This document shows, piece after piece, positions 1,845-22,362 of a DNA stretch of 64,000 nucleotides. The notes beneath the pieces were generated by a model, which made no database searches, was not told where the DNA came from, and saw nothing but the letters and a program-made list of their open reading frames with translations. The translations under genes were made by a program, and so were the position numbers. Positions within the stretch are counted from its first letter, which is position 1. Each line of letters begins with the position of its first letter. Source of the DNA: a virus; IMG/VR virus record IMGVR_UViG_3300012920_000025, positions 1-64,000 of that record; one strand, 5' to 3'.

Positions 1845-3449
1845 ATGGCACTACCTACTTTGTTACCTGCCAGTAACTCAAGTAAGAGCATCTTACCTGA
1901 AACTGGAAGTCACGGTAACGTAAATAGACTACTACCATATAAGATATATTCAGAAAATAGCAGTACTCTGTTTTCTGGAAACTTTGTATCTGGCGCAGTT
2001 GATCAAGTAGCATACACCTACAAAAAGTTGGGTGGCGATGTTTTGGACATCGAACTATCAGAGGGTAACATATACGCTGCATACGAAGAGTCTGTATTAG
2101 AATATTCTTATCTTATTAATGTACATCAAGCAAACAATGCTCTACCGAGTTTTTTAGGGCATGCTACAGGCACTTTTGACCACAAGGGGGAGTTAACATC
2201 AGGACCCGTATCTGCGAGTCTTAAATACCCCAAATTTGACTATGGTTTTGCAAGAAACGTCTCAGAGCGTATGGGCGCAGAAGTTGGATTGAAAGACTCG
2301 GTTCAGTATTCTGCTTCTTTTGCAGTTAATACTGGACAGCAAGATTATGACCTGCAGGATATCATATCTTCAAGAACTAATGCATTTGCAACAGGGTCGG
2401 TGACTATATCTGATAATTCAGAACTTAATGCGGAAGATACAATTGTTATTGTGACAACAGACGGTACAACTGTCACTGCCACAGCACATGCAGCAACAAC
2501 AACAAACTCAGACACAAACTCTCCAACATTTCAGATTGGCGCAGGCGCTGCAGCAACAGCAACAAACTTGGCAACTTGTTTGGATGCTAATAGCAAACTA
2601 ACTGCGACAGCAGATGGAACCGAGGTTACGATAATCCAGTCTGTGGCAGGAAGAAAGGGCAACACCTCTATCACTCTTACGGACTCTGGCACCGCCGGAA
2701 TGACAAAGTCTGACTTTACAGGCGGCACAACAATAGATTACGTAGGCAAGATAGATGGTAAAAGAATACTAATCAAAAAAGTCTACTACAAAACACCACA
2801 AGCAATGTGGAGATTTTATGGATACTACGGGGGGTTGAATGTTGTAGGGAACTTCTCAAACTACGGACAGTTCTCAGATGACTCAACGTTCCAGTTGGTA
2901 CCGACTTGGCAGAACAAATCGCAAGCGCTTGCGTTTGAGGATGCGATTTACACTAGGATGTCACACTGGTCATACGAACTAAGAAACAATAAGATAAGAT
3001 TGTTTCCAACGCCATTCAGTGGCGGACCGAAGAGGATGTGGGTTGAGTTTTCAGTTCCTGCATCCAACATTACAGATGACACAAATGGAAGATCCGGAAT
3101 AGAAGGGGTTAACAACATGAACACACTTCCTTTTTCTAATCTTCCATATGATACGATTAACTCAATCGGCAAGCAATGGATCAGAAGATTTGCTCTCGCT
3201 CTTTCCAAAGAGATGTTAGGGTTAGTTAGATCAAAATTTGCAACATTACCGATACCAGGCGAAAGCGTCACGCTTAACGGATCTGACCTTGTTAGTCAAG
3301 GCAAAGAAGAGCAGAACGCCTTAAGAGAGGAACTGAAAGCAACATTGGCAGAATTGACTTACACTAAGATGTCTGAACAAGAGGCAACAATAGTTGATAA
3401 TTCTGAAAAGGTTTTACAAAGGATACCATATTCGGTATATGTGGGGTGA
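1845..3449 (+). CDS. 13: Neck protein, gp13-like, with inserted domain
   Basis: 534 residues. ATG 1845 is chosen because CGGAGG lies about 8 nt upstream; the ATG four bases earlier is in another frame and soon stops. The outer parts resemble T4/cyanophage gp13 neck proteins, which join the portal to the tail (YTKKMS-like C-terminal helix, aromatic MWRFYGYYGG segment). Residues about 185-297 look like an insertion: a Thr/Ala-rich beta domain ending in FTGGTT, of a type found in many phage virion proteins. This makes the protein much longer than T4 gp13. The gp14- and gp15-like genes follow directly. Confidence 0.65.
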   Translation: MALPTLLPASNSSKSILPETGSHGNVNRLLPYKIYSENSSTLFSGNFVSGAVDQVAYTYKKLGGDVLDIELSEGNIYAAYEESVLEYSYLINVHQANNALPSFLGHATGTFDHKGELTSGPVSASLKYPKFDYGFARNVSERMGAEVGLKDSVQYSASFAVNTGQQDYDLQDIISSRTNAFATGSVTISDNSELNAEDTIVIVTTDGTTVTATAHAATTTNSDTNSPTFQIGAGAAATATNLATCLDANSKLTATADGTEVTIIQSVAGRKGNTSITLTDSGTAGMTKSDFTGGTTIDYVGKIDGKRILIKKVYYKTPQAMWRFYGYYGGLNVVGNFSNYGQFSDDSTFQLVPTWQNKSQALAFEDAIYTRMSHWSYELRNNKIRLFPTPFSGGPKRMWVEFSVPASNITDDTNGRSGIEGVNNMNTLPFSNLPYDTINSIGKQWIRRFALALSKEMLGLVRSKFATLPIPGESVTLNGSDLVSQGKEEQNALREELKATLAELTYTKMSEQEATIVDNSEKVLQRIPYSVYVG

Positions 3450-3455
3450 TAACGG

Positions 3456-3947
3456 ATGAGCGACAACAAATGGAATCAACCTGATGCTCCTCCACCACCA
3501 TTATTTACTGGAAAAAAGGAGAGAGACCTTGTAAAGCAGGTCAGCGACGAACTTGTAGAAAGAGTCGTCGGGCAACAGATTGTATATTATCCTATTTCAA
3601 TTGAGGAAACAAACTTTCATCCAATATATGGAGAAGCGTTGAATAAAACTTTTCTCAATCCAATCAGAGTCTACGCTATGGTTGAGTGGAAGGGGTATGA
3701 AACCGAGACTACCAACTTAGGTGTCGATAGATTGTCAAAAATCACAGTTCACTTTCACAAGCGGAGATTGACAGAGGACCAAAATCTCTTTGTTAGGGAA
3801 GGTGATTTCATATTGTACGGGGAGACTTATTATGAGATTGCAACATTGAATGAACCAACAAGAATCTTTGGTCAGAGAGAGCATATGATGGAAATATCAG
3901 CAGAATGCATCAAGGCAAGAGAGGGTTTGTTCAATGGAACGCAATAA
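3456..3947 (+). CDS. 14: Neck protein, gp14-like
   Basis: 163 residues. Position between the gp13-like and gp15-like genes and a C-terminal beta segment (VREGDFILYGETYYEIATLN) resemble gp14 neck proteins, which complete the head-to-tail connector. It is shorter than T4 gp14. It starts 6 nt after the previous stop with only a weak ribosome site, suggesting translational coupling, and its 3' end overlaps the next gene by 14 nt. The Pro-rich start (PDAPPPP) is probably flexible. The assignment rests on synteny and a short motif. Confidence 0.55.
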   Translation: MSDNKWNQPDAPPPPLFTGKKERDLVKQVSDELVERVVGQQIVYYPISIEETNFHPIYGEALNKTFLNPIRVYAMVEWKGYETETTNLGVDRLSKITVHFHKRRLTEDQNLFVREGDFILYGETYYEIATLNEPTRIFGQREHMMEISAECIKAREGLFNGTQ

Positions 3948-4779
3948 ACCTTTTAGCGAAGGGTTGAATGAGTACGAAGGAAAGCGTATTTTCGATTCTC
4001 GCATAGAAAACATCGACACAGCAATGTATAAGTTTGTTGACGAGCAAATGAACTTGCATGCTCACGATGGAACCTCATTTAGAAAGGTTCCAGTTGTCAT
4101 GGCATCCGCAGAAAGGTCCGCTTTGACGAAAGGAGACCTGAGAGTTCGCGACGATGAGGGCGCGCTTATCATGCCCATCATTACAATCGAAAGAACTTCA
4201 ATGGTCAAAAGTCCAACAGATAAAGGCACAGTCTGGGCAAACGTTCCCGCACTGGACAAAGTCAAGGGCGGCAACATTCCTACAATGCAGAGAGTACTGC
4301 AGGGCAAAACATCTAATTTTAAAAATGCACATGCAAAGAAAAAGCACGGTCAACTAAACTTCCCAAGCAAAGTTGACAAGACTGTGTATCAAACAATATC
4401 AATACCTTTGCCGGTGTATGTGACAATAATGTACGAGATAACTATCAGAACAGAATATCAACAACAAATGAATGAGTTGGTGGTACCGTTCATGACGGTT
4501 CCGGGTGGTATCAATTATATTATTATTAGAGATGAAAATCACAGATATGAAGGATTCATTGAACAAGACTATTCGCATGAGAATAACATAAGTAACTTTT
4601 CGAATGAAGAGAGGAAGTTTGAAACAAAGTTTAACATAAAGGTGTTGGGGCACCTAATCGGAGACGGAGTAAATCAAGAGACACCTCAAAAGGTTGTCAA
4701 TGAAACTATTGTTGAAGTAAAAATCCCAAGAGAAAGGGAGTCTTTGTCTCCCGAAGAGTTAGCAAAGTACGGTTTATGA
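3934..4779 (+). CDS. 15: Tail completion / sheath stabiliser, gp15-like
   Basis: 281 residues. It carries the layout of T4 gp15: an N-terminal FRKVPVV segment, then PLPVYVTIMYEITIRTEYQQ followed by a Met-rich PFMTVPGG segment, then an FETKFNIKVLG strand. In T4 gp15 caps the top of the tail and joins it to the neck. The start overlaps the gp14-like gene by 14 nt. A full-length close paralogue forms the N-terminus of the next gene, with shared segments such as FSNEERKFETK and EVKIPRER. Confidence 0.7.
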   Translation: MERNKPFSEGLNEYEGKRIFDSRIENIDTAMYKFVDEQMNLHAHDGTSFRKVPVVMASAERSALTKGDLRVRDDEGALIMPIITIERTSMVKSPTDKGTVWANVPALDKVKGGNIPTMQRVLQGKTSNFKNAHAKKKHGQLNFPSKVDKTVYQTISIPLPVYVTIMYEITIRTEYQQQMNELVVPFMTVPGGINYIIIRDENHRYEGFIEQDYSHENNISNFSNEERKFETKFNIKVLGHLIGDGVNQETPQKVVNETIVEVKIPRERESLSPEELAKYGL

Positions 4780-4788
4780 GGTTAAGAA

Positions 4789-7700
4789 ATGGTTAAGAAA
4801 CCAACAAAACCAAGAAGAATAGAGGATAGACCATTTCCTCGTTCTACGATGGAGACGATTGATACAGCGCTCAATAGATTTATTGACGAGACGCTGGATA
4901 TTAATTGTGTTACAACAACTGGTTTTAGAAAAGTTCCAGTTATTTGGTCTTCTGCAGAAAGGATGTATCAAAGCAAGAGCGATCAGAGAATCCGAGATAA
5001 AGAAGGTGCACTGGTTATGCCTCTTATCACCATTGAAAGAACTGGTGTTGTTAAGGATCCTTCTAGGAAGGGCACAGTCTATGCTAACATACCACCTATT
5101 GATAAAGTTAAGGGCGGGTCAATTCAGGTATCCAGAAAGATAAACCAAGGCAAAACTTCAAACTTCGAAAACGCGCACTCAAAGAGAAAGCGCGGTCAAC
5201 TAAACTTTCCAGGACAACCATCAGGAAAGACAGTATATCAAACACTTACTATACCTTTACCGGTTTACGTAACTGTGCAGTATGAAATAACTCTTCGCTC
5301 TGAATATCAAGAGCAGATGAACCAAATGCTAACGCCGTTCATCACTAGACCTGGTGGCATTAACTATGTCATTATTGAAGAGGGTAGATTAAGATACGAG
5401 GCGTTTGTTCAAGAAGACTTCGCGCAGAACAATAACATTAGAAACTTTTCGAATGAAGAAAGAAAGTTTGAAACCAAGATAAGAATAGAGGTTTTAGGAT
5501 GGTTAACATCTCAAGATAAGAATAGTTTACAACCAGACTATGCAGTGAGAGAGGGCGTTGTAGAGGTCAAGATTCCAAGAGAGCGAATCGCACTTGCAGA
5601 TGAACTCGCCACCGCTAACGGCAGACTTTATGGACTAGAGGGTATTAAACCAAATGCTAGGTTTAGAAAGGCGCAAGATCAAGATGATCCTATCTCTACA
5701 TTTGGTCCGGTCTCGGTACCTGGATTACCAGTTGCTGCTTCCTCTGCAGGGACAGAATCGGGGACAAGGGGACCAGAGGGACCACCAGGACCCGCAGGCG
5801 CAACAGGTGCGCAAGGTGTCAGCGTATCGACAGTAACAATAAATGTATCAAATGAACTGATAATAACATTATCAGATGGAACTGTCTTTAATCTTGGTAA
5901 CGTGAAGGGTGATACTGGTGCACAAGGACCTGCAGGTGCAGACGGCGCAGACGGCACTACTCCTAGTCTTGATGCTATATCGGGATCTACTTTAACTTAT
6001 CACAATCTTTCTGGATCTAGTCTAACCCTCAATCTCTTGAACTCTGATAGGGCAGCGATCAATGATTTCGATTTTACTTCTTTGTCTGGGTCCACAGGTA
6101 CGATACATAACCTAAGTTCTTCCGCAATAACATCAAACCTGTTGGACACAGACAGGGTACTCGCAGGGGACCTTGATGTAACCAGCATTGGTGCTACTGG
6201 AGATTTGAGTTTTACAGGATTGTCTTCCGGTACTCCTGTCGAAGGCAAGTACTTAGCGTTAGATGCGAGCAATAATGTTATACTCGCTGCAGCAACGGCA
6301 GAATCAGCGAACTTTACCACTATATCAGGATCTAGTTTAACGTATCACAACATGTCAGGTTCAACTTTAGATTTAAATCTGTTAGACTCAGATAGAATAG
6401 AGGTTAATGACCTTTCTGGTTCAACAGGCACTATACACAATTTAAGTTCATCGATTGTCACCTCAAATCTTCTAGACGCAGATAGGTTAGAGGCAAGAGA
6501 CATCACAGGCACAGGTGAAGTTACCCTAACCGGACTCTCATCGGGTACTCCTGTTTCCGGGAAGTTCCTCGCTCTTGATTCAAGCGACAATGTTATCTTA
6601 ACTGCTGGCGGCGGTGGCGGCGGAGGCGATGGCACCATTGGAGCAGCAGAGGATGGAACATATACTGACGGTCTATTTACGGATTTTGTTTCTTCAACCC
6701 CAATTGGCACACCTATTGATAGGTTTAACGAAGTGTTGAAAATTCTTGCACCCAGTCCAGCGCCAGATTTAAGTTCAATATTGCACAATATATCTAATGG
6801 TACCACCGCAAAACTGTCTTTTGGATCTAGTCAGACTGTTCCTCACTATTCTTCCTCCGCTACTGCTGCAGGTTTTTCAGCAATAGACATAAATGGGTCA
6901 TATGCTCCTGGTAATAGTGATAGAAATTTAAGGTTAGGTATTTACGATGGAACACAGGACATTACTGGAATTTTAAACGACAACGTCGCTGCTAGTATAA
7001 CAAACGGATATGTGGCATATGCTTCTGGCGCGTATGGAAACGCAGAAGTAGGCACATTGAAGTTGGAAGTAAACGGCAATATTATACACTCCATTGATTT
7101 ATCGGGATTTAACGGCATCGGCGCACCTGGATCTGGAACAGATTCTGATTTAAATGCTGAAACTTCTGGTTTTACAAACACATCCCTAACGGCATCAAGT
7201 TTTGATGGAAATAATGCCGAATGGTTTATTTTCAAACACAGAACAGGAAGGTTTAAGGTAGACGTAAACTCGATGGTGCCAGGGTGGAACTACGCCAGAG
7301 TCATACACACTGTGGGATCAACCAACAAACAAACTAATTTTATTGAATGGATAAATGACCCATCTGGATCTCAAAACAACTTGGCAGCAAACAATGGAAG
7401 AATAGAAGACATAACGCTGATAGGTTCAAAATACCTTTCCGGCGTACAATATAACACGGACGCAACAGCAAACTATAAAGTTGATATCTCCAACTTATAT
7501 CAGAACGTTTATCAAGCATCTGGCACTCCTATCAGTTTCACTGTTAGCAACTCAACAACACCATCGGCACAGTCTGTCCCATCTATTAATCACGCTGGCG
7601 GTGAAGACAGCACAAAGACGTTGAGTGTGACTGCTGGACTGGACGTGAACACCGATTCCCTACTAAATGGTGCTATAACTGCTAACGTAACAGCGACTCA

Positions 7701-10173
7701 TCCTTTAAAGTCGACTTTGTCAAACGCTGGATCTGCGACAACTGGTAATGGATTTTTGATAGACAATAGAACTCTTGCAAGTAGTAACTTGAGTGAGAAG
7801 TTTCACGACGAAACGTTTAGAAAAGTATCGTCTTCCTATGACGCTCAGGCAGATGTAACCAATGGATCTAATACTTGGAACTCGCAAACTCATATGCTCG
7901 CACCAAACACTGCATTTGCAGACGGACTCCTCTTTTTCAACCAAAGACTTTACAGTCCAATCGATGGCGATGTTCCTAATGGTGGTAATTTTAGCGGCAT
8001 TTCAAATGTTGCTGCAGGGCAACCAGATTATTCTTCTGTGACTGGCACAAGAACATTTTTTAGAGCAGTTCAAAACAAGACTGGTGCTACAAAGAGAGAC
8101 ATGAAGATCGAGACAACTAAAAATAGCACTACCTTTGATGCAAATGCACTTGCTGCAGCAAACGCTCACTTATATGTAAAAATCCCAGGAAGCACAGGTT
8201 GGATGGATGCTTCTCAAAACTTTGTATATGGAGAAGTCACTACCGATGACGGTGCCCTGATATCAGGCGCTACAAATGATGTAGACAGTGGTAACAACAC
8301 ACACCACTTAACATTCGGATTGGCATCTGTTGCAAACAACGAATATGTCATGGTGAAGATTGAGGCAGATGAGAGTTGGGCAGGATATATATCCCAGATG
8401 GATTTTACCATCGGCGCAACAAGCAACACTGCAAACAGCGCCCCTGAACTAGATGATATAGACGCAAATGATACAGGATTAAACGACGCTCGATTATCTT
8501 TTGGAACTTCGCACACAATTCCAAACTACTCTGATGTTACTGGTTCTGGCATTGGTCTATCAGATTTTAACACCAATGGTTACTATAGTGTTAGTGGCGA
8601 CAGACGCGGCGTATTTAGTGCTTTCGCCGTCATTGATGGAGAACTAAATGAGGATGTAGCGTCAAGTGGAAACAATTATCCAACCAATGCTTTCAATGAT
8701 GCACTTGATGGGTCTCTTGTTTTGGAGGTTAACGGAAATGAAGTACATACTACGGATATATCAGACACAATAAATGCAAAGTCTAATAACTTTAATGGAA
8801 ATAGTTCAGGGTTCAGTGTCTCTTCTGTGAACTGGAGCACAACAGTGGATAACATCCCTGATTATACTAAACCATATAGAACTGGCACGTATCAGATTGG
8901 CACTGCAGATCAAAGACTCGGTTGGAACTATGCAAGAGTTATACACAGGAAAGCGGGAGGTGATGTAAATACAAATTATGTAGAGTGGGTTGTGGATACT
9001 GATTCGAATGCTTTATCCTCTGCTGACGTAGTATTCAATAATTTCTATCACACCGACGTATTCAAACAGTCAGGAGTTGGGTACTTTTCATCTAGACCAA
9101 CTGCATCTTTTGAGTACAGAGCGTCAAACGTGTATAGAAATGTCCATCAGAATGGTAATGCAATATCATTCCCGACTACGACTAACTGTTCTATCTCAAA
9201 CATCAGAGTGTCAGGGTCCGGTGTTACTACAAAGTCCGTTGCTGCAGCGACCACTAGTTTGGCAGACCTCAATAATGTAGGAAATTGTCACATTAAGGAT
9301 ATAGAAGTTTCAGGAACTGCATTGTTTGACAATCTAACTTCAATAGTGGAAGAGTTCGATGTTCACAACTCTCACAATGTAACTGTATCTTCTAGGATTA
9401 TACACCCGCACAAAGCAACCCTTAACGTATCATCCGTAACAAAGTCAAACTTAATGGTGTACAATGGAACACTAGGGAGTACAAATGCGAATACGAATGA
9501 ATACTTTAATAGAGAAGATTACAGAATTATCTCAGGCACATATAATAACCAAGCAGATCCTCCAGCAGGCGGCAATGCGTGGAACGCTAACCTATCTGTT
9601 AATGACAACGGAAATCACCCATCACATGCTGATGGTTTGGTGTTTGTTAATGGATATTTAATGTCACCAAAAAAGGTTGGCGTTGCAGGAGATACAAGAA
9701 ATATAGACGACGGTGGGACTTTGCAGGCACCAGCAGGCAATCCCAACTACAGCACCCTAACGATAAGCACAAGAACGTTCGTAAGACACTTCCAGAACAA
9801 TACTAGTAACGACAGAAGCAGCATTACTATAACTCTTTATGGTAGTGGTGCACTAGTTAAAAGAGCGACGTCTTTAGGGGCGAATGGAAATTTTTATTTA
9901 GATGCGAAGATACCCGGAAAAACAGCATGGTTGGATGTGGGCACTGCCTATTCCAGCAATAACCCAAGTACAGATGGAGCAGGTGCACTAGACGGTGCAG
10001 ATCCTGGAAATCCATCTATCACTATAGCACCAGGTGGGACTGGCGTAGTTTGCAATTTTAACGGGGAGTCTTTGCTTGGAACTGGCGGCGGTTCTGAGTA
10101 CATAGTTCTTAGAATCACTGCTGATGAAAACTGGTCAGGTTATTTAACCAGGATTCAGGTTGCATATAGTTAA
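4789..10173 (+). CDS. Giant fibre: gp15-like domain fused to collagen-like and fibre repeats
   Basis: 1794 residues. Residues 1-280 are a paralogue of the gp15-like tail-completion protein just upstream (METIDTALNRFIDE, PLPVYVTVQYEITLRSEY, NFSNEERKFETK). Two Gly-X-Y collagen-like stretches follow near residues 325-343 and 374-390. Next come fibre modules of the SGS-x-x-TYH...NLLDSDR type up to about residue 610, and a Gly8 linker. The rest is a tandem duplication of about 550 residues (units near 675-1222 and 1234-1794) sharing GWNYARVIH, ADGL-F-N, RTF-R--QN and an E/TADE-W-GY-end. The N-terminus should anchor it at the neck or tail top, making it a candidate whisker or collar fibre; that role is inference. 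Confidence 0.75.
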   Translation: MVKKPTKPRRIEDRPFPRSTMETIDTALNRFIDETLDINCVTTTGFRKVPVIWSSAERMYQSKSDQRIRDKEGALVMPLITIERTGVVKDPSRKGTVYANIPPIDKVKGGSIQVSRKINQGKTSNFENAHSKRKRGQLNFPGQPSGKTVYQTLTIPLPVYVTVQYEITLRSEYQEQMNQMLTPFITRPGGINYVIIEEGRLRYEAFVQEDFAQNNNIRNFSNEERKFETKIRIEVLGWLTSQDKNSLQPDYAVREGVVEVKIPRERIALADELATANGRLYGLEGIKPNARFRKAQDQDDPISTFGPVSVPGLPVAASSAGTESGTRGPEGPPGPAGATGAQGVSVSTVTINVSNELIITLSDGTVFNLGNVKGDTGAQGPAGADGADGTTPSLDAISGSTLTYHNLSGSSLTLNLLNSDRAAINDFDFTSLSGSTGTIHNLSSSAITSNLLDTDRVLAGDLDVTSIGATGDLSFTGLSSGTPVEGKYLALDASNNVILAAATAESANFTTISGSSLTYHNMSGSTLDLNLLDSDRIEVNDLSGSTGTIHNLSSSIVTSNLLDADRLEARDITGTGEVTLTGLSSGTPVSGKFLALDSSDNVILTAGGGGGGGDGTIGAAEDGTYTDGLFTDFVSSTPIGTPIDRFNEVLKILAPSPAPDLSSILHNISNGTTAKLSFGSSQTVPHYSSSATAAGFSAIDINGSYAPGNSDRNLRLGIYDGTQDITGILNDNVAASITNGYVAYASGAYGNAEVGTLKLEVNGNIIHSIDLSGFNGIGAPGSGTDSDLNAETSGFTNTSLTASSFDGNNAEWFIFKHRTGRFKVDVNSMVPGWNYARVIHTVGSTNKQTNFIEWINDPSGSQNNLAANNGRIEDITLIGSKYLSGVQYNTDATANYKVDISNLYQNVYQASGTPISFTVSNSTTPSAQSVPSINHAGGEDSTKTLSVTAGLDVNTDSLLNGAITANVTATHPLKSTLSNAGSATTGNGFLIDNRTLASSNLSEKFHDETFRKVSSSYDAQADVTNGSNTWNSQTHMLAPNTAFADGLLFFNQRLYSPIDGDVPNGGNFSGISNVAAGQPDYSSVTGTRTFFRAVQNKTGATKRDMKIETTKNSTTFDANALAAANAHLYVKIPGSTGWMDASQNFVYGEVTTDDGALISGATNDVDSGNNTHHLTFGLASVANNEYVMVKIEADESWAGYISQMDFTIGATSNTANSAPELDDIDANDTGLNDARLSFGTSHTIPNYSDVTGSGIGLSDFNTNGYYSVSGDRRGVFSAFAVIDGELNEDVASSGNNYPTNAFNDALDGSLVLEVNGNEVHTTDISDTINAKSNNFNGNSSGFSVSSVNWSTTVDNIPDYTKPYRTGTYQIGTADQRLGWNYARVIHRKAGGDVNTNYVEWVVDTDSNALSSADVVFNNFYHTDVFKQSGVGYFSSRPTASFEYRASNVYRNVHQNGNAISFPTTTNCSISNIRVSGSGVTTKSVAAATTSLADLNNVGNCHIKDIEVSGTALFDNLTSIVEEFDVHNSHNVTVSSRIIHPHKATLNVSSVTKSNLMVYNGTLGSTNANTNEYFNREDYRIISGTYNNQADPPAGGNAWNANLSVNDNGNHPSHADGLVFVNGYLMSPKKVGVAGDTRNIDDGGTLQAPAGNPNYSTLTISTRTFVRHFQNNTSNDRSSITITLYGSGALVKRATSLGANGNFYLDAKIPGKTAWLDVGTAYSSNNPSTDGAGALDGADPGNPSITIAPGGTGVVCNFNGESLLGTGGGSEYIVLRITADENWSGYLTRIQVAYS

Positions 10174-10183
10174 GGACTAGATT

Positions 10184-11605
10184 ATGGCGTTACCAGGTAC
10201 AGGATCTACAAATCAGAGTTTAACTTTTGCTGCTTCTAAAAAGGTTGCGGGTAAGGCACATACGTCAAATCTTAAAGAGATTTACAATGAAACCATTCCA
10301 TCTAACATCCAGATCAATACAAGCACTATTTTTGCAGAAGATATTCCACAGACGGTAACAAACGATACTGGGAGTCTGTACACAAGATTCAGTGCATCTT
10401 TGGGCGGCAACGTTGTGGTTGAGTATGTAGATTTTTGTGTCGAATCAATATCTGGTACAACATACGATGCGAATGATGGAACTTTCGGGGATGTTGGGTT
10501 TGGTGGCGGAGATGAAGCACAGTCTCCAGGTCCTCACGGATATCAACTTAAGTTAACTAGTAGTTATCAGGCACAATCAACAAACCCGAGCAAAGGTTCT
10601 GGGTTTTTAGTAAACAATCAAATAGTACACCAGAGCAACGGCGCACTACAACTTGTCAATCCTTTGTTTGGTCCACAAACGGGAAACAACTACGGATTAC
10701 AGTTGTTCACTGATCACCCTGATGATGGCGGACTTCAAATTCCAACAACAAGTCCAATAGAATTTTTAGTTGATTATTTTAATGGTGTTGTTTTTGTCCA
10801 AGACTTTAAAGCGTCCGCTGTTCCAAAATATGCTAGAGGTTTTATTTATATAGGTAAGTTTGCAAACACTGCAATATCGGAAGCAGGCGGTGGCGGCGAC
10901 ACTATATCGGGATCTCTGGCAACCTACCACAGGATGACCGGATCAACGGCAACATTTAACTTGGTTGATGCAGACAGAATGGATGCGGGTCAAGTAAAAG
11001 CAACAACTTTTTCAGGTTCTTTGCTGAAACTTTCAGATGGTTCAGATTATCTTATCGCTGGGAGCAATATAACCCTCTCAACGGGGTCAAACGGTTCCAT
11101 AACGATAAGTTCCACCGGCGGCGGCGGAATAGCAGATGTAGACAATATATCCGGGTCCTTCGCTACCTACAATGCTATTTCTGGCGCTGCCGGTGACTTT
11201 TATACCATAGATGCAGATAAGATAACAACGGGACATATCACTGCAAATAAGTTATCGGGGTCGCTCACCACACTATCAGATGGTTCAGACTACCTTATTG
11301 CAGGAGGTGGAATAACCCTGGCGACAGGATCAACGGGCGCTGTGACAATATCTACATCTGGAAGTATTTTAGATATAGAAAGGTATTTGGCAAACACATC
11401 ATTTCAGGAATCTCCAAACGGATCAAGGACAACCTTTACAGTTGCACAATCGTTTGTATTGGGAACTCAAATGGTTTTTAGGAGCGGTCTTTATATGACT
11501 CCAGGAGTGGGCAACGACTATACGATTACAAACAATACTACAATAGAATTCAGCGATCCACCAACTACAGGTGAAAATCTAAGAATAACTTATATAAGAA
11601 CATGA
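10184..11605 (+). CDS. Fibre/adhesin with shared SGS-DADR modules
   Basis: 473 residues. The N-terminal half is beta-rich with no family I recognise. Residues about 243-390 contain two copies of a module, each with ISGS-x-ATY, then DADR or DADK, then TLSDGSDYLIAG-x-x-ITL. These match the modules in the neighbouring fibre genes. The last ~80 residues (from SPNGSRTTFTV to LRITYIRT) resemble a small beta-sandwich common at the ends of phage tail and structural proteins. Its start is 10 nt after the giant fibre, so the two are probably co-expressed. Confidence 0.6.
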   Translation: MALPGTGSTNQSLTFAASKKVAGKAHTSNLKEIYNETIPSNIQINTSTIFAEDIPQTVTNDTGSLYTRFSASLGGNVVVEYVDFCVESISGTTYDANDGTFGDVGFGGGDEAQSPGPHGYQLKLTSSYQAQSTNPSKGSGFLVNNQIVHQSNGALQLVNPLFGPQTGNNYGLQLFTDHPDDGGLQIPTTSPIEFLVDYFNGVVFVQDFKASAVPKYARGFIYIGKFANTAISEAGGGGDTISGSLATYHRMTGSTATFNLVDADRMDAGQVKATTFSGSLLKLSDGSDYLIAGSNITLSTGSNGSITISSTGGGGIADVDNISGSFATYNAISGAAGDFYTIDADKITTGHITANKLSGSLTTLSDGSDYLIAGGGITLATGSTGAVTISTSGSILDIERYLANTSFQESPNGSRTTFTVAQSFVLGTQMVFRSGLYMTPGVGNDYTITNNTTIEFSDPPTTGENLRITYIRT

Positions 11606-12409: not shown

Positions 12410-14683
12410 ATGGCTAAAACAAAAATTGGCACAAAACTATTAGCGGATAGTGCGATTACTACAGCAAAACTCGCAACATCCAACGTAACCAGAGATAAGA
12501 TTCAGTCTGGTTCAGTTCAGGTAGGTCACTTGGACCTATTTCAAGCAAGAAACGACATTGCACATCTTGAGGATGCGGACGTATTAATCGTATCTGCATC
12601 TAAGGGCAACGGTGGTGGCATGAGAACTGTCACATTCGCACACCTCAAGGCAGCAGTCTCAGCATCAAATGCTGCAGTTGGTGACCCAGGACATATTCAG
12701 TTCCACGGCGCTGGCGGCACAAATGCAATGGATGCGATTTCAAAGATTCGTTCAGACGGTGTTCACTTGACAGCATCTGACGGCGGTAAGGTAGTATTTG
12801 CTTTTACGGACATCTCAGGATCAACAGGTGAACTTTTTGCAGACTCCAAAACAGGCGTTACTCTTAATGCAAAAACTACCCTATCATTCAACATTAACGG
12901 TTCGGATGAATTAGAACTCAACGCTACAACACTTCAACCAGCAGCAGATGAGGGTCTTTCTCTCGGCGCAGCAGGTAGAAGATTTAGTACTGCATATGCA
13001 ACCGCTTTCTCCGGTTCCGGCACCTCAACTTTACACAAGTTGGATGCAGATGAGGTTGATTCTAGAAAGTTGATCGCAACAACAATCACTGGTTCTGGCA
13101 CGACAACTGTTCACAAGTTAGACGCAGACGATGCTACATTTAACGTTGTTAAGACCACAAATCTTTCTGCTTCTGCAACAGCGCAGATTCATAAGTTAGA
13201 TTCTGATCTAGGTACAATCGACAGAGTCCAGGCGCTTGTTGTAACTGGTTCTGGCACATCTCAGATTCACAAGTTGGATTCTGACCTTGGTACTATCGAT
13301 AGGGTTCAGGCACTTGTTGTGACTGGTTCCGGAACGTCTCTTTTCCACAAACTAGACGTCGACGAAGGTACGTTTGGCAAAGTTGTTACAACAAACCTCA
13401 CATCTTCTGGACTTTCACAGTTCCACAACATTGTGGCGAGCGATATTTCAGGTACAATCGGTGAGTTTACAGATTTGACTGTTGATGTACTTAATGCAAG
13501 AACATATAAGTCAACTATTACAACTTCTGAGCACTTTGAGATTGTTTCAAAGCAAATTATTGCAGCGGTATCTCAATCTGCTGGAGCACCAGTCGAGGGC
13601 GCAGGTCTTCAGATTGGTGGTACTGCCGGTTCAGGTTCTGCTGGCATTGCAAGCGTTATCGTTGGCGATGCTGGAGGTGGCGCAGGTGCAGATCTTATCT
13701 TTAAGATTGGTTCAACCCAGGGTCTTTCACTGTCTGCTACTGGCGGCAGAAAAGATGATGCAGTTCTTTTCGGTGTATCCGGTACACTTTCAGCATCCGT
13801 GGGTATCTTTCAAGAAATCGATGTTGCTAGAGGTTTGAATGCAAATTCTTTCTCGGGTTCAGCAGGAACGTTCCACACAGTTTCGGGTTCTAACCTAACT
13901 GTGCACTTGTTGGATGCTGATGAGGCACAACTTGCAAGCGTCTCTGGATCAAGTGCAACCTACAATGTGGTGTCTGGTTCGAACATTACGGTTCACTCTC
14001 TAGATGCAGATAAGGGTCGCATTTCAGACTTGTCTGGTTCTTCGGCAACATACCACACAGTTTCTGGATCTACAGTAACTGTGAATCTTCTTGATGCTGA
14101 TAGAGCGGCAATCAATGATCTAGATGTGGTTACGATTTCTGGTTCTAAGACCTCGACAATACACAAGGTGACCACAGATCACTTGTCAAGTTCTACAATC
14201 CAGGCACACAAAGTAACTGCGGATAAGGTGTTAGTATCATCATTCACTGGTGATGATGTTATCCACGCAGCAAACCTAAACAGGGACATTGTTTATGATG
14301 TAGACAATGGTCACGGCGGTCTTAGTTTTGCAAATGGTGTTTTGAGTATCGGACATAGACGACAGGTGTTCTCAAGAGACGCAACAGTTGCAAATAGAGC
14401 AGCAGCGCCTACGCAAGGTTCTGGTTCACTATTTACCACAGCGTCACTTGCAGCAGATGCAGCATCGAACCCGACAATTATTATGTCTGGTTCTGAGATG
14501 GTATACCTAAATGGTGTACTTCTTATCCCTGCACCAGCAACGCAGCGTCCACCAGTTGATGGTGACTACACTATCGATTATAACCCTTCAAATGGTCCTG
14601 TGACCATTGAGTTGCACGAGACACTCAGTATGGACTCTGACGATATTCTTGTTGTTCAGTATCTTTCTGGTACGATCTCATAA
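12410..14683 (+). CDS. Tail fibre / adhesin, paralogue 1
   Basis: 757 residues. The N-terminus (AKTKIGTKLLADSAITTAKL...) is the start seen in many phage fibre proteins. A conserved core, SKIRSDGVHLTASDGGK--FAFTDISGSTGE, is almost identical to one in the next gene. The middle is tandem repeats of about 26 residues (TGSG-x-S-QIHKLDSDLGTIDRV), two of which are near-identical in DNA at 13184-13339. Then SGS-ATYH-VSGS...LLDAD modules follow. The end (SGSEMVYLNGVLL, DYTIDYNPSNG, DDILVVQYLSG) is a compact beta domain. It is likely a trimeric fibre. A strong terminator follows. Confidence 0.7.
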   Translation: MAKTKIGTKLLADSAITTAKLATSNVTRDKIQSGSVQVGHLDLFQARNDIAHLEDADVLIVSASKGNGGGMRTVTFAHLKAAVSASNAAVGDPGHIQFHGAGGTNAMDAISKIRSDGVHLTASDGGKVVFAFTDISGSTGELFADSKTGVTLNAKTTLSFNINGSDELELNATTLQPAADEGLSLGAAGRRFSTAYATAFSGSGTSTLHKLDADEVDSRKLIATTITGSGTTTVHKLDADDATFNVVKTTNLSASATAQIHKLDSDLGTIDRVQALVVTGSGTSQIHKLDSDLGTIDRVQALVVTGSGTSLFHKLDVDEGTFGKVVTTNLTSSGLSQFHNIVASDISGTIGEFTDLTVDVLNARTYKSTITTSEHFEIVSKQIIAAVSQSAGAPVEGAGLQIGGTAGSGSAGIASVIVGDAGGGAGADLIFKIGSTQGLSLSATGGRKDDAVLFGVSGTLSASVGIFQEIDVARGLNANSFSGSAGTFHTVSGSNLTVHLLDADEAQLASVSGSSATYNVVSGSNITVHSLDADKGRISDLSGSSATYHTVSGSTVTVNLLDADRAAINDLDVVTISGSKTSTIHKVTTDHLSSSTIQAHKVTADKVLVSSFTGDDVIHAANLNRDIVYDVDNGHGGLSFANGVLSIGHRRQVFSRDATVANRAAAPTQGSGSLFTTASLAADAASNPTIIMSGSEMVYLNGVLLIPAPATQRPPVDGDYTIDYNPSNGPVTIELHETLSMDSDDILVVQYLSGTIS
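13184..13339 (+). repeat. Tandem 78-bp coding repeat (two units)
   Basis: Two adjacent 78-bp units (13184-13261 and 13262-13339) encode the same 26-residue fibre repeat with a few synonymous changes. A similar repeat occurs in the paralogous fibre gene near 16290-16440. It is a likely site of unequal recombination. Confidence 0.75.
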
Positions 14684-14765: not shown

Positions 14766-17700
14766 ATGGCAATAACAAAAATAGGTACCAAACTAATAGG
14801 AGATGGTACGATAACAACAGTTAAGTTAGGCACGAGCGCAGTTACGAGAACAGATATTCAGTCAGGGTCCGTACAGGTAACTCACTTGGATGTTACTCAA
14901 GGTGCTGGAGGTCACGTTGACTTTCTCGACGATGACTTTTTAATTGCAGGTGATGCAACAGACTCAAGCGCTAAAAGTTTTAGTTTCAGTCAGTTGAAGA
15001 CAGCGCTTTCTTTATCCAACGCCGCGAGAGGCGATGAAGGCACTGTTCAATTTAACAATGGTTCTGGTTTCGATGGTATTTCCAAGATCAGGTCAGATGG
15101 CGTGCATCTCACTGCTTCAGACGGCGGCAAGATTGTACTTGCTTTTACTGACATCTCAGGATCTACAGGTGAAATCTTTGCAGATTCAAAAACAGGACTT
15201 ACATTGTCGGCAAAGACCAGACTTTCACTTCACTCAAGTGGGACAGTGCAGGGTAATCAATCCGGTTCTGTTGAACTTCGTGCTGATGGTCTTTTCCCGT
15301 CACCAAAACCACAAGTTGCTGCACAACCAGGAACTTTTAGGATTCAGTTCACTTCAGGTTCTATCGGACCACAATCAAGTGGCAATCCAAAGACTTATGG
15401 ACCTTTGAAGGAGTACAGTGCACAGATGGTTTCTGTGTTAAGCACAGGTTCAGGCGCAAGTCTTGGTAAAGAGTGGTACTTATTTTACCTTAATCAGGCA
15501 TCAAGTCCTTCACCGATTCCAATCAGTGCGAGTTTGAATCTTGAATACAATGACGTCGCACCTGGAAAGAGGAGGCACGACATATCGGTTGAAGCAGTTA
15601 GTGGTATCACCGACTGGCGCGATGTTGTTGCAAATCTTTACACTGCAATGAATACAGAATTAGACACAAACGCTGATGTTGCAACAGTTGCACTTAGTAC
15701 TGCTGCAAACATTAATGCCACTGCTTCAATCACGGTGACTTACAAGGCAGGCACAATGCAGGGTGCAGTCGCTGTAGGTACAGGCGGTCAAGGAATTTCA
15801 CCTAATGGTTCTGGGTTTGGTCGTGGTACTTCTGCCGGCGGACTATCACCCTCATCACCGTTTGATGAAACGCCACCATCGAATAACCCAGCACCTATTG
15901 AAGGGCAGTTCCAGCAAGATAATCATGACTACAAGCAATCTGGTGAACCAGATACGTCAGGCGGCGAGATGATTGTTGTGGCATCTGGTTCTACAGCACA
16001 GGATCGTGATGAGGTTTGGTTAAACCTTGGTGCATCTTCAACAAAGTATAACGAAGTTTATGCTAGTGTTATCTCTGGGTCTGGTACTGCACAACTTCAC
16101 AAAGTTGATGCTGACGAAGTAACAGCAAATAGGATTGTACAATCTACGAAAGAAACCGAGTTATCTGGTTCTGGTACTGCATCCCTTCATAACCTTTCGG
16201 TTGAAGAAGGTACGTTCGGCGGAGTTAAGTTCTCTTCTGTAAGAGATTCAGCAGCGTATGCAGCAACTGGGTCCGGCACTGCAAACCTTCACAAGATCGA
16301 CGCAGATTTGGGTACGATTGATAGAGTAAGTGCTCTTGTTGTAACTGGGTCTGGTGTTTCGCAGATTCACAAGATTGATGCCGATTTGGGTACAATCGAC
16401 AGAGTAAGTTCTCTTGTTGTAACTGGTTCTGGAACCTCGCTTTTTCACAAGTTGGATGTAGATGAGGGTGATTTTAGAAAAGTTATCTCAACTAATGTAA
16501 CTTCTTCTGGACTTGCACAACTCCACAATATGGTTGCTTCTGATGTTTCCGGCGCAGTTGGTGAATTTAATCAACTCAACGTAGATCACTTGAATGCGAG
16601 AGTTATCAACTCTACAACAGATACTGTTGAGCATTTTGAAGTAAACGTGAAACAACTTATTCCAGCAGTAAGTCAGTCTGCAGGAGCATCGCAAGAAGGT
16701 GCTGGTCTTCAGATCGGCGGGACAGCAGGAAGTGGTTCAGCGGGTATTGCGAGCGTTATTCTCGGCGATGCAGGTTCTGGTGCAGGTGCTGACCTTCTAT
16801 TTAAGGTTGGTTCGGTACAGGGTGCATCTTTAAGTGGATCGGCAAACGAACCACTGCAGAGATTTGGCGTAAGTGGGTCTATTTCAGGATCTATTGGGGT
16901 TTTCCACGAGATCACGATCAATAAGAGCATGGGTGCTCAAGACTCAATATTCAGTGGTTCAAGTCTTAATGCACATTTGCTTTCAGGATCTACCGGAAAT
17001 GCACACTTTGTCGATGTAAATCGTGCAGAAGTAGCAGATATCTCAGGTTCTACCATGACTTATCATACAATAACTGGTTCTGAGGTGAATGCACATAGAG
17101 TCACTGGCGACGTTGTTTTGATCGCAGATGTATCTGGTTCAAATGCAGTATACCAGACATTGTCTGGTTCGACTTTGACCGCAAACTTGCTAGACGCGGA
17201 TAGATTAACGGCAGATGTTGACGTTGCTGGTGCAATATCGGGTTCTGCGTTATCTACACTTCATAAGTTGACTTCAGACAACTTATCAGGTTCTCACATT
17301 CAAGTTCACGGACTAGGACAGTATGATCGTATTGACAATCTTGTTGTTAAGGACCTGCAGGGTGATGACGTTATCAAGAAAGCAAGTTTAAATAATGACA
17401 TTGTCAAAAACAACAGCGGCATTCATGGCGGTATTGTCTTCAACAATGGTCAGTTGAGCGTGGGTTGGAAGAGAAGAATCTTCTCAAGATCTACAAGGAA
17501 ACTTGTTAACAGAGCACAACCAACACAAGGTTCAGGATCTCTCTATACGACTTGTTCTTTGAGTGAGATAAGAGTGTTGTCTGGTTCTGAGATGGTTTAC
17601 TTTAATGGTCTACTTCTCGCAAAGAGTAACGCTAATCAGGCAACCTACAAGAAGGATGGTGATTATCGTATTGACTATAACAGTGGTGGTGGTTTGCAAC

Positions 17701-18446
17701 CAGGATCTTACGTACTTAGATTTACTTCTGGTTCAACGAACTCTACTGTTACGGGTAAAGCATCTGGTGGTAGCAATCCGCAGAACAATACGTATGCACC
17801 TATTACAAATGGCCGGGCCCAACTTGTAATTGTTGAGAGCACCGGTAGTCAAAGTTATATCTTCCACTTGGCGGATGGCGGTTCATCACCTCTACCAGTA
17901 AGTGCTAGTATTAACTTAGACTTCAGTGACCTCAATCCTGGCAAAAAGCGTTTTGATATTCCTGTTGAAGCAAGAGCGAATATCAATGACTGGAGAGATG
18001 TTGTGACTAACCTGAAGAACAAGATGATTGGAGAATTGCAGCACAGTGCGTCGCTGGCAACTATATCATATAGTCCTGCAGCAAGCATCAATGCAACTGC
18101 TTCAATCACTGTAACTTATGGTGCGGGCACTACAGAGGGTAATGTTCAGATTGGTACTGGTTTCACCAGGTCCAATAACTCTGGTAAATTTACTTCTACT
18201 TTTAGCGGTGAATTATTCCCAGCATCGAACTTCCCAGCGCCACTTGAGTCTAGGTTGCAAGCAGGGCAGAACCATGACTACAAGGCATCTGGTATACCAG
18301 ACGTCTCAGGTGGTGAGGTAACAATCGCAACCTCTGGTTCAACCTTAATCGCTGGAACTGAGATATTCTTGTCTGAAAATCTTGCAATGGATTCGGACGA
18401 TGTTCTTGTAGTTCAATACCTATCTGGTTCACACAGATTTGGTTAA
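14766..18446 (+). CDS. Tail fibre / adhesin, paralogue 2 with two inserted domains
   Basis: 1226 residues, a paralogue of the 757-residue fibre before it. Both share N-terminus, SKIRSDGVHLTASDGGK core, 26-residue GTIDRV repeats, SGS modules and C-terminus. It is longer because of two related insertions, at about residues 187-409 and 978-1193. Each contains FTSGS, ISASLNL/VSASINL, NINATASITVTY and a later HDYK-SG-PD-SGGE segment. AGGAGG precedes ATG 14766, and a strong terminator follows. It is probably a receptor-binding or distal fibre; the inserted domains may be alternative carbohydrate-binding or decoration units (inference). Confidence 0.7.
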   Translation: MAITKIGTKLIGDGTITTVKLGTSAVTRTDIQSGSVQVTHLDVTQGAGGHVDFLDDDFLIAGDATDSSAKSFSFSQLKTALSLSNAARGDEGTVQFNNGSGFDGISKIRSDGVHLTASDGGKIVLAFTDISGSTGEIFADSKTGLTLSAKTRLSLHSSGTVQGNQSGSVELRADGLFPSPKPQVAAQPGTFRIQFTSGSIGPQSSGNPKTYGPLKEYSAQMVSVLSTGSGASLGKEWYLFYLNQASSPSPIPISASLNLEYNDVAPGKRRHDISVEAVSGITDWRDVVANLYTAMNTELDTNADVATVALSTAANINATASITVTYKAGTMQGAVAVGTGGQGISPNGSGFGRGTSAGGLSPSSPFDETPPSNNPAPIEGQFQQDNHDYKQSGEPDTSGGEMIVVASGSTAQDRDEVWLNLGASSTKYNEVYASVISGSGTAQLHKVDADEVTANRIVQSTKETELSGSGTASLHNLSVEEGTFGGVKFSSVRDSAAYAATGSGTANLHKIDADLGTIDRVSALVVTGSGVSQIHKIDADLGTIDRVSSLVVTGSGTSLFHKLDVDEGDFRKVISTNVTSSGLAQLHNMVASDVSGAVGEFNQLNVDHLNARVINSTTDTVEHFEVNVKQLIPAVSQSAGASQEGAGLQIGGTAGSGSAGIASVILGDAGSGAGADLLFKVGSVQGASLSGSANEPLQRFGVSGSISGSIGVFHEITINKSMGAQDSIFSGSSLNAHLLSGSTGNAHFVDVNRAEVADISGSTMTYHTITGSEVNAHRVTGDVVLIADVSGSNAVYQTLSGSTLTANLLDADRLTADVDVAGAISGSALSTLHKLTSDNLSGSHIQVHGLGQYDRIDNLVVKDLQGDDVIKKASLNNDIVKNNSGIHGGIVFNNGQLSVGWKRRIFSRSTRKLVNRAQPTQGSGSLYTTCSLSEIRVLSGSEMVYFNGLLLAKSNANQATYKKDGDYRIDYNSGGGLQPGSYVLRFTSGSTNSTVTGKASGGSNPQNNTYAPITNGRAQLVIVESTGSQSYIFHLADGGSSPLPVSASINLDFSDLNPGKKRFDIPVEARANINDWRDVVTNLKNKMIGELQHSASLATISYSPAASINATASITVTYGAGTTEGNVQIGTGFTRSNNSGKFTSTFSGELFPASNFPAPLESRLQAGQNHDYKASGIPDVSGGEVTIATSGSTLIAGTEIFLSENLAMDSDDVLVVQYLSGSHRFG

Positions 18447-21738: not shown

Positions 21739-22362
21739 ATGACAACTCAAAAGTTTTGGTCAGATGCAGCAATCGAGCCAAAAAGAAAATATAGATTTTT
21801 GTTATCGTTCAATGGTATCCCACAGTGGATTGTAAAGACAACAGGGAAACCAAACTTTTCGGTAACAGAGTCAGAACACAGTTTTATTAACTACAAGTTT
21901 TACTACCCAGGAAGATTGGAGTGGGACGAGGTGAGCATCACTTTGGTCGACCCAGTAGATCCGGATGCATCACACACGATGCTTCAGTTGATCGAAAACT
22001 CTGGGTATGTTGCACCACACAACTTTTTGAATGATCCGCAGGGTCGTGGTAAAGCAAGTAACGTAGTCACCTTCTCTAAGAAGAGAGCGGTTGATGCAGT
22101 GGGTGGACGTATGTACATTCACATGATTGATGAAGACGGTGCTCCAATTGAGACATGGTCTTTGTACAATCCTTGGATTAAATCTGTCAACTTTGGTGAC
22201 TTGGATTATGAGTCAGATGAGTTGGTAAACGTTGAACTTTCTATTAGATATGACTGGGCAGACCTTGAAACAAAGGTTACCCCAAGTAGAGATCTACAGA
22301 GAGCAGCAGGATTTTCAAGCACTCAGGTGACAAATAGAAGCAACAGAGCGCCCGGTGTTTAA
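21739..22362 (+). CDS. 19: Tail tube protein, gp19-like
   Basis: 207 residues. The pattern KRKYRFLLSFNGIPQWIVKT, then FINYKFYYPGRLEWDEVSITLVDPV, then YNPWIKSVNFGDLDYESDELVNVELSIRYDWA is that of T4-type tail tube proteins. These stack as hexameric rings inside the sheath. It directly follows the sheath gene, as in other T4-like phages, with AGGAGG before ATG 21739. Confidence 0.92.
   Translation: MTTQKFWSDAAIEPKRKYRFLLSFNGIPQWIVKTTGKPNFSVTESEHSFINYKFYYPGRLEWDEVSITLVDPVDPDASHTMLQLIENSGYVAPHNFLNDPQGRGKASNVVTFSKKRAVDAVGGRMYIHMIDEDGAPIETWSLYNPWIKSVNFGDLDYESDELVNVELSIRYDWADLETKVTPSRDLQRAAGFSSTQVTNRSNRAPGV

What the first reader, a model, noticed from the sequence alone, without database searches (positions are those of the whole stretch)
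3934..10173. Duplicated gp15-like domain fused to a giant collagen/fibre
The N-terminal 280 residues of the 1794-residue protein are a paralogue of the adjacent gp15-like tail-completion protein (shared PLPVYVT, NFSNEERKFETK, EVKIPRER). After it come two collagen-like stretches and over 1300 residues of fibre. The arrangement implies fibres anchored at the neck or tail top, a whisker-like structure built by a mechanism unlike T4 fibritin.
Basis: partly seen in the sequence, partly recalled or inferred. Interest (0 to 1): 0.75.

Follow-up and report, generated by a model that had tools for sequence, protein, structure and literature searches.

The report
Phage neck ring protein grown fibres
This ocean phage carries two copies of the ring protein that caps its tail, and the second copy has grown a huge fibre; relatives have done the same, separately, with the neighbouring ring protein, which suggests that these viruses grow neck fibres directly out of their head-tail connector.

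Summary
Gene A (3934-4779) and residues 1-283 of the 1794-residue protein B (4789-10173) are paralogues: 58% identity, E 1e-112. An AlphaFold2 model of A has T4 gp15, the tail terminator, as its best solved match (Foldseek E 1.3e-9; Z 12.6). It sits in the order gp13-gp14-gp15-fibres-sheath.

After the gp15 domain B has two short collagen-like runs, SGS repeats and two tandem copies of a 580-residue module. That module is shared: 154 viral stretches encode it, and it is followed by a homologue of the next gene in 81 of 82 readable cases. It is usually carried on ordinary fibre N-termini.

The strongest new evidence is convergence. Related marine phages carry C-terminal fibres on gp15 alone, on a gp15 duplicate, on gp14 alone, on a gp14 duplicate, or on one chain with two tandem gp14 domains (7 contigs, no other gp14 found). 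No locus had both gp14 and gp15 fused.

Best reading: B replaces some subunits of the hexameric tail-terminator ring and projects a fibre from the neck, probably for host adhesion. Neck location is inferred; there are no virion data. New variant of a known kind (neck fibres).

The parts
1845..3449 (+). gp13-like head-tail adaptor (Ad2), 534 aa
   Evidence: phrog_211 'head-tail adaptor Ad2' E 3.6e-10
3456..3947 (+). gp14-like neck/head-closure protein (Hc2), 163 aa, unfused in this phage
   Evidence: AF2 model: best Foldseek hit is the T4 portal-neck-tail complex 9mkb_0, E 2.0e-6, then neck stoppers of other phages (Z 8-10.6); head closure Hc2 PHROGs match 6 and 3 of 42 members, best E 0.005 and 0.012
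3934..4779 (+). A: unfused gp15-like tail terminator/sheath stabilizer, 281 aa
   Evidence: AF2 model: 9mkb_AB E 1.3e-9, T4 gp15 4huh_C Z 12.6, rmsd 4.5, 156 aligned; BFVD neighbours named tail sheath stabilizer; phrog_227 in 6 of 65 members, best E 3.4e-4
4789..5637 (+). B residues 1-283: second gp15-like domain
   Evidence: 58% identity to A, E 1e-112; HMM match 6-282
5761..5817 (+). collagen-like run 1 (B 325-343)
   Evidence: GXY triplets
5908..5955 (+). collagen-like run 2 (B 374-389)
   Evidence: GXY triplets
5971..6612 (+). SGS/TxHNLSSS/LLDxDR shaft repeats (B 395-608), shared with the fibre genes at 12410 and 14766
   Evidence: BLASTP against locus ORFs
6679..8415 (+). fibre module copy 1 (B 631-1209)
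   Evidence: HMM; 79% identical to L003
8434..10170 (+). fibre module copy 2 (B 1216-1794)
   Evidence: HMM; 31% identical to copy 1, E 4e-57
10184..11605 (+). C: partner gene of the fibre module, 473 aa; N-terminal domain (CN) conserved next to the module, C-terminal terminal domain (res. 400-471)
   Evidence: CN follows the module in 81 of 82 readable cases; the terminal domain is 68% identical to the one that ends B in L004
18585..21695 (+). tail sheath protein (context)
   Evidence: phrog_23 tail sheath E 1.9e-69
21739..22362 (+). tail tube protein (context)
   Evidence: phrog_4542 tail tube protein E 2.1e-26

Best explanation
B is a fibre-bearing paralogue of the gp15 tail terminator. Its N-terminal domain takes places in the gp15 ring at the top of the tail, alternating with or partly replacing A, or forms a closely attached ring. 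The chain leaves the ring after the conserved C-terminal VEVKIPRER strand, probably the arm that engages the top sheath ring, and continues through collagen-like and SGS-repeat stalk segments to two copies of a 580-residue fibre module. The result is a neck-anchored fibre, most likely an accessory host-adhesion device. The partner gene C probably forms or completes part of the fibre. Shown here: paralogy, gp15 and gp14 folds, gene order, modular origin of the fibre, and repeated fusion of fibres to the two adjacent ring proteins. Inferred: ring occupancy, neck position in virions, trimerisation, adhesion.
For: (1) gp15 identity by fold and order. (2) Some relatives have only one gp15 and it carries a ~120-residue C-terminal extension ending in the terminal domain (L020, L021, L023, L024, L052, L067, L078), so in them the working terminator itself carries the extension. 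(3) One clade (100/97) holds the extended singles and all A and B copies, nested in short singles. (4) Convergence: gp14, the next ring up, bears C-terminal fibres as a sole copy, as the second of two genes, or as two tandem domains in one chain with no other gp14 found; the tandem clade arose separately from the other fused clade. The tandem form gives a 1:1 ratio of the two domains by covalent linkage. (5) In the whole records searched and in 216 loci with both genes, no case has both gp14 and gp15 fused. (6) L126 order is major capsid-gp13-[gp14-gp14-fibre]-CN-gp15-sheath. (7) Tail terminators insert a C-terminal arm into the top sheath ring (PMC10491603), so a C-terminal extension would start at the ring's outer side.
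Against: No virion data. The same fibre module occurs on unfused, ordinary fibre N-termini in many phages, and in L096 it lies near portal and protease genes, so the module does not imply the neck. Six-fold rings and trimeric fibres do not fit each other trivially. Ring occupancy by B was not modelled. The absence of double fusions is confounded by shared ancestry.
Confidence: 0.72

Rival explanations
1. B's gp15-like domain forms its own homo-oligomeric collar or second ring around or next to the A ring, rather than mixing with A.
For: A and B form separate conserved lineages within each phage group; collars separate from the terminator exist in Milano and 7-7-1 (PMC10491603, PMC12796354).
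Against: Extended single-copy gp15 shows that the ring itself tolerates extensions; tandem gp14-gp14-fibre chains tie a second copy to the ring-forming copy at 1:1.
Confidence: 0.17
2. The fibre is made but removed or used only in assembly (chaperone-like, or cleaved), so mature particles carry little or no neck fibre.
For: No virion data exist; T4 neck fibres act partly in assembly (Wood and Conley, cited in PMC10491603).
Against: No intramolecular-chaperone or protease family was reported among the Pfam matches of B; close relatives keep the module at 70-79% identity.
Confidence: 0.06
3. B is a baseplate or tail fibre whose gp15-like N-terminus was recruited to bind another tail ring.
For: Terminator-like folds recur in many tail and injection-system caps; the fibre module occurs on other N-termini.
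Against: The B domain remains 58% identical to A and shares its invariant residues; it lies with gp13-gp14-gp15; gp14 fusions repeat the pattern with another neck protein.
Confidence: 0.05

Closest known systems
T4 gp15 tail terminator / sheath stabilizer (PDB 4HUD, 4HUH, 9MKB)
   Same: Fold (Foldseek E 1.3e-9, Z 12.6), size, place between gp14 and the sheath
   Different: A second gene copy is fused to a fibre of about 1500 residues; T4 has one unfused gp15
T4 fibritin (Wac) collar and whiskers
   Same: Would also put fibres on the neck
   Different: Fibritin is a separate trimer that docks on gp13 domain III (PMC12270204); here the fibre is part of a connector-ring polypeptide
Anabaena phage A-1(L) neck fibres
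   Same: Long multi-part fibres at the neck, built from several genes
   Different: A separate gp82 trimer docks on a gp5 pentadecamer (PMC10966104); no fusion to the terminator or stopper
Lactococcal neck passage structure (TP901-1, Tuc2009, phiLC3)
   Same: Elongated neck-anchored proteins with adhesion modules, thought to be accessory adsorption devices
   Different: The anchor is a BppU-type domain, not a tail terminator copy (PMC9692632, PMC10747895)
Extended gp15 of Flavobacterium phage immuto (KNV73_gp057, 463 aa)
   Same: Distant gp15 relative with a C-terminal extension, in a cultured phage
   Different: Single copy, short extension, no fibre module

Membership tests
T4 gp15 (Tc2 tail terminator) family | gp15/tail-terminator fold | tested here: met
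   T4 gp15 best, and the other leading rows are terminators or caps of contractile and siphophage tails; model pLDDT 72.6. Modelled for A; B domain by 58% identity
T4 gp15 (Tc2 tail terminator) family | Gene position: after gp13 and gp14, before sheath and tube | tested here: met
T4 gp15 (Tc2 tail terminator) family | Detectable sequence relationship | tested here: met
   phrog_227 matches 6 of 65 members, best E 3.4e-4; the window copy itself does not match
T4 gp15 (Tc2 tail terminator) family | Hexameric ring capping tube and sheath | not testable with these tools
   No complex prediction and no virion data
T4 fibritin (Wac) | Separate fibre protein that docks on gp13 | tested here: not met
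   The fibre is covalently part of a gp15-like chain
T4 fibritin (Wac) | Fibritin C-terminal (foldon) sequence | tested here: inconclusive
   No fibritin family among Pfam matches of B at E 0.1; absence of a match is weak evidence
T4 gp14 (Hc2) family, for the relatives' fusions | Stopper/gp14 fold and position between gp13 and gp15 | tested here: met
   9mkb_0 E 2.0e-6; T4 gp14 complexes 9lu4-9lu7 also listed; L126 order
Trimeric collagen-containing phage fibres | Consecutive Gly-X-Y triplets | tested here: met
   7 and 6 triplets; 7 or more in 1 of 1000 shuffles; Pfam Collagen only 15.7 bits against a 27.2 cut-off
Trimeric collagen-containing phage fibres | Trimerisation | not testable with these tools
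   No oligomer prediction available

The most novel reading that the evidence does not exclude
Marine T4-like phages have repeatedly turned a homohexameric connector ring into a mixed ring in which every second subunit carries a fibre: A3B3 for gp15, and three gp14-gp14-fibre chains where the two copies are fused in tandem. This lowers ring symmetry from six to three, so that each ring offers three fibre-bearing chains, the number that a trimeric fibre needs.
Probability: 0.35. Interest if true: 0.78.

Novelty: new variant of a known kind. Interest (0 to 1): 0.64.

Why it matters
Neck fibres are known from few phages and are anchored there by separate docking proteins. If this reading is right, a large group of uncultured marine phages grows fibres straight out of the two hexameric rings that close the head and cap the tail. 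It would explain why these phages duplicate connector genes, would let neck fibres be recognised from sequence alone, and would show how a six-fold ring can be diversified by gene duplication. The tandem gp14 chains make ring stoichiometry directly testable with two small proteins.

Tried and rejected
PHROGs (E 0.01) and Pfam found nothing for A itself, and the PDB sequence search with the family profile gave no match, so identity rests on fold, gene order and weak PHROG hits of relatives. No solved structure resembles the fibre module by sequence (best E 0.043) and it was not folded, because the second structure job went to gp14. I considered that the cassette itself marks the neck and rejected that: it sits on many unrelated N-termini. 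I considered a single gp15 duplication for all A/B pairs; the tree puts the window group's A and B as sisters apart from the older B lineage, so either two duplications or gene conversion is needed, and this is left open. Paper searches found no report of a terminator or stopper fused to a fibre; only open-access papers were searched.

Full report
Setting. The window is bases 1-64000 of an 86.5 kb IMG/VR virus record. Genes are, in order, gp13-like adaptor (phrog_211, E 3.6e-10), a 163-aa gene, A, B, C, more fibre genes, tail sheath (phrog_23, E 1.9e-69) and tail tube (phrog_4542, E 2.1e-26). It is a contractile-tailed, T4-like phage.

Observation. A (3934-4779) and the first 283 residues of B (4789-10173) align at 58% identity over 266 residues, E 1e-112. 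A 65-sequence alignment keeps 20 columns invariant. dN/dS among close relatives is about 0.02-0.04 for both copies where dS can be estimated, so B's domain is not a relic. The collagen-like runs are seven and six Gly triplets long; seven is reached in 1 of 1000 shuffles.

Is it gp15? The sequence libraries are silent on A itself, but the AF2 model (pLDDT 72.6) finds T4 gp15 first: 9mkb_AB E 1.3e-9, 4huh_C Z 12.6, rmsd 4.5 over 156 residues. BFVD neighbours include proteins annotated tail sheath stabilizer and completion protein, and phrog_227 (tail sheath stabilizer) matches six relatives. The upstream 163-aa gene is gp14-like: 9mkb_0 E 2.0e-6, then neck stoppers of many phages; Hc2 PHROGs match relatives marginally.

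Series of architectures for gp15. In the loci collected here the gp15 gene occurs short and single; single with a C-terminal extension of about 120 residues ending in an ~75-residue terminal domain; or as a short A followed by an extended B. B ranges from 407 to 1892 residues. In a maximum-likelihood tree the extended singles and all A and B copies form one clade (100/97). Within it an older B lineage (L019, L022, L025-L028, L038) and the window's B lineage are separate, and the window-type A and B are sisters (99/93). In L030 the terminal domain is a free-standing 126-aa gene behind a short gp15. Singles with the extension matter most: in them there is no other copy at the locus, so the terminator tolerates a C-terminal outgrowth.

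How the giant B arose. L004's B (624 aa) matches window B 1-605 and then continues into a terminal domain that in the window is found at the end of the next gene, C (L004 B 370-624 against C 239-473, E 1e-50). So a block consisting of the fibre modules, a stop, and the N-terminal part of C lies between the stalk and the old terminus, as if inserted there. The block is a unit: the module is followed immediately by a CN-type gene in 81 of 82 readable cases. It is found in 154 viral contig stretches and in megaphage records, mostly on unrelated fibre-type N-termini. It is thus a traded fibre end, not a neck marker. The terminal domain resembles a small domain of a phage capsule depolymerase (9k4a, E 1.6e-7).

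Convergence on gp14. Scanning loci with the module exposed proteins that begin with gp14 domains. Two further scans and re-annotation gave: (i) two tandem gp14 domains in one chain, then fibre, with no other gp14 found: 10 loci from 7 contigs; (ii) a short gp14 followed by a gp14-fibre gene: 16 loci; (iii) a fused gp14 with no second copy in the locus: 25 loci, a few of them cut at the contig end. Some of these loci are overlapping copies of one contig. Whole-record searches agree: gp14-fused records hold one short gp15 or, in two cases, none detected; gp15-duplicate records hold one short gp14. Of 216 loci with both genes, 54 have extended gp15, 13 fused gp14 and none both (Fisher p 0.04, not corrected for relatedness). 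The gp14 tree puts the tandem clade inside the short gp14 group and the other fused clade apart, so gp14 fusion arose at least twice, and the first and second tandem domains form separate lineages (FastTree).

Mechanism. Tail terminators cap the tube and thread a C-terminal arm into the top sheath ring (PMC10491603). In A and B the last conserved strand is VEVKIPRER, and B's stalk follows it. I therefore infer that B sits in or on the gp15 ring and that the stalk leaves at the ring's outer side. The tandem gp14 chain fixes a 1:1 ratio of its two gp14 domains in a hexameric protein (T4 gp14 is a hexamer, PMC12270204). By analogy A and B may alternate. That last step is conjecture.

Comparison. 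T4 fibritin docks on gp13 as a separate trimer; A-1(L) neck fibres dock on a pentadecameric ring; lactococcal NPS proteins use a BppU-type anchor. Paper searches found no terminator or stopper fused to a fibre, within the limits of an open-access library. The nearest named relatives in the phage collection are Microcystis phage Mel-JY01 (333 aa) and Flavobacterium phage immuto (463 aa with a C-terminal extension), both about 25% identical.

Limits. No virion data, no oligomer modelling, module fold unknown, hosts unknown.

Noticed in passing
window 1845-3449: The gp13-like adaptor is 534 aa here but about 417 aa in close relatives (L011, L017); residues 180-292 match phrog_28344 (E 0.0023), so a domain seems inserted there.
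   Followed up: no
L133 3878-10126; L156 5913-11513: Single ORFs of 2082 and 1866 aa carry the CN domain at the N-terminus and two fibre modules further on, with another CN gene next to them.
   Followed up: no
L096 670-12667: In another phage group the fibre module plus CN pair lies behind portal and head-maturation protease genes, with no gp14 or gp15 of this family detected in the locus.
   Followed up: partly
window 12410-14683 and 14766-18446: Two long fibre-like genes share a similar start (MA.TKIGTKL), the SGS repeats and weak copies of the terminal domain with B and C.
   Followed up: partly
L030 8412-8792: The terminal domain that usually ends extended gp15 is a free-standing 126-aa gene behind a short gp15: apparent gene fission or a fusion precursor.
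   Followed up: partly
L139 6122-9743: In a further lineage an extended gp15 (415 aa) is followed, after a short gap, by an unfused module protein (707 aa) and a CN gene.
   Followed up: partly
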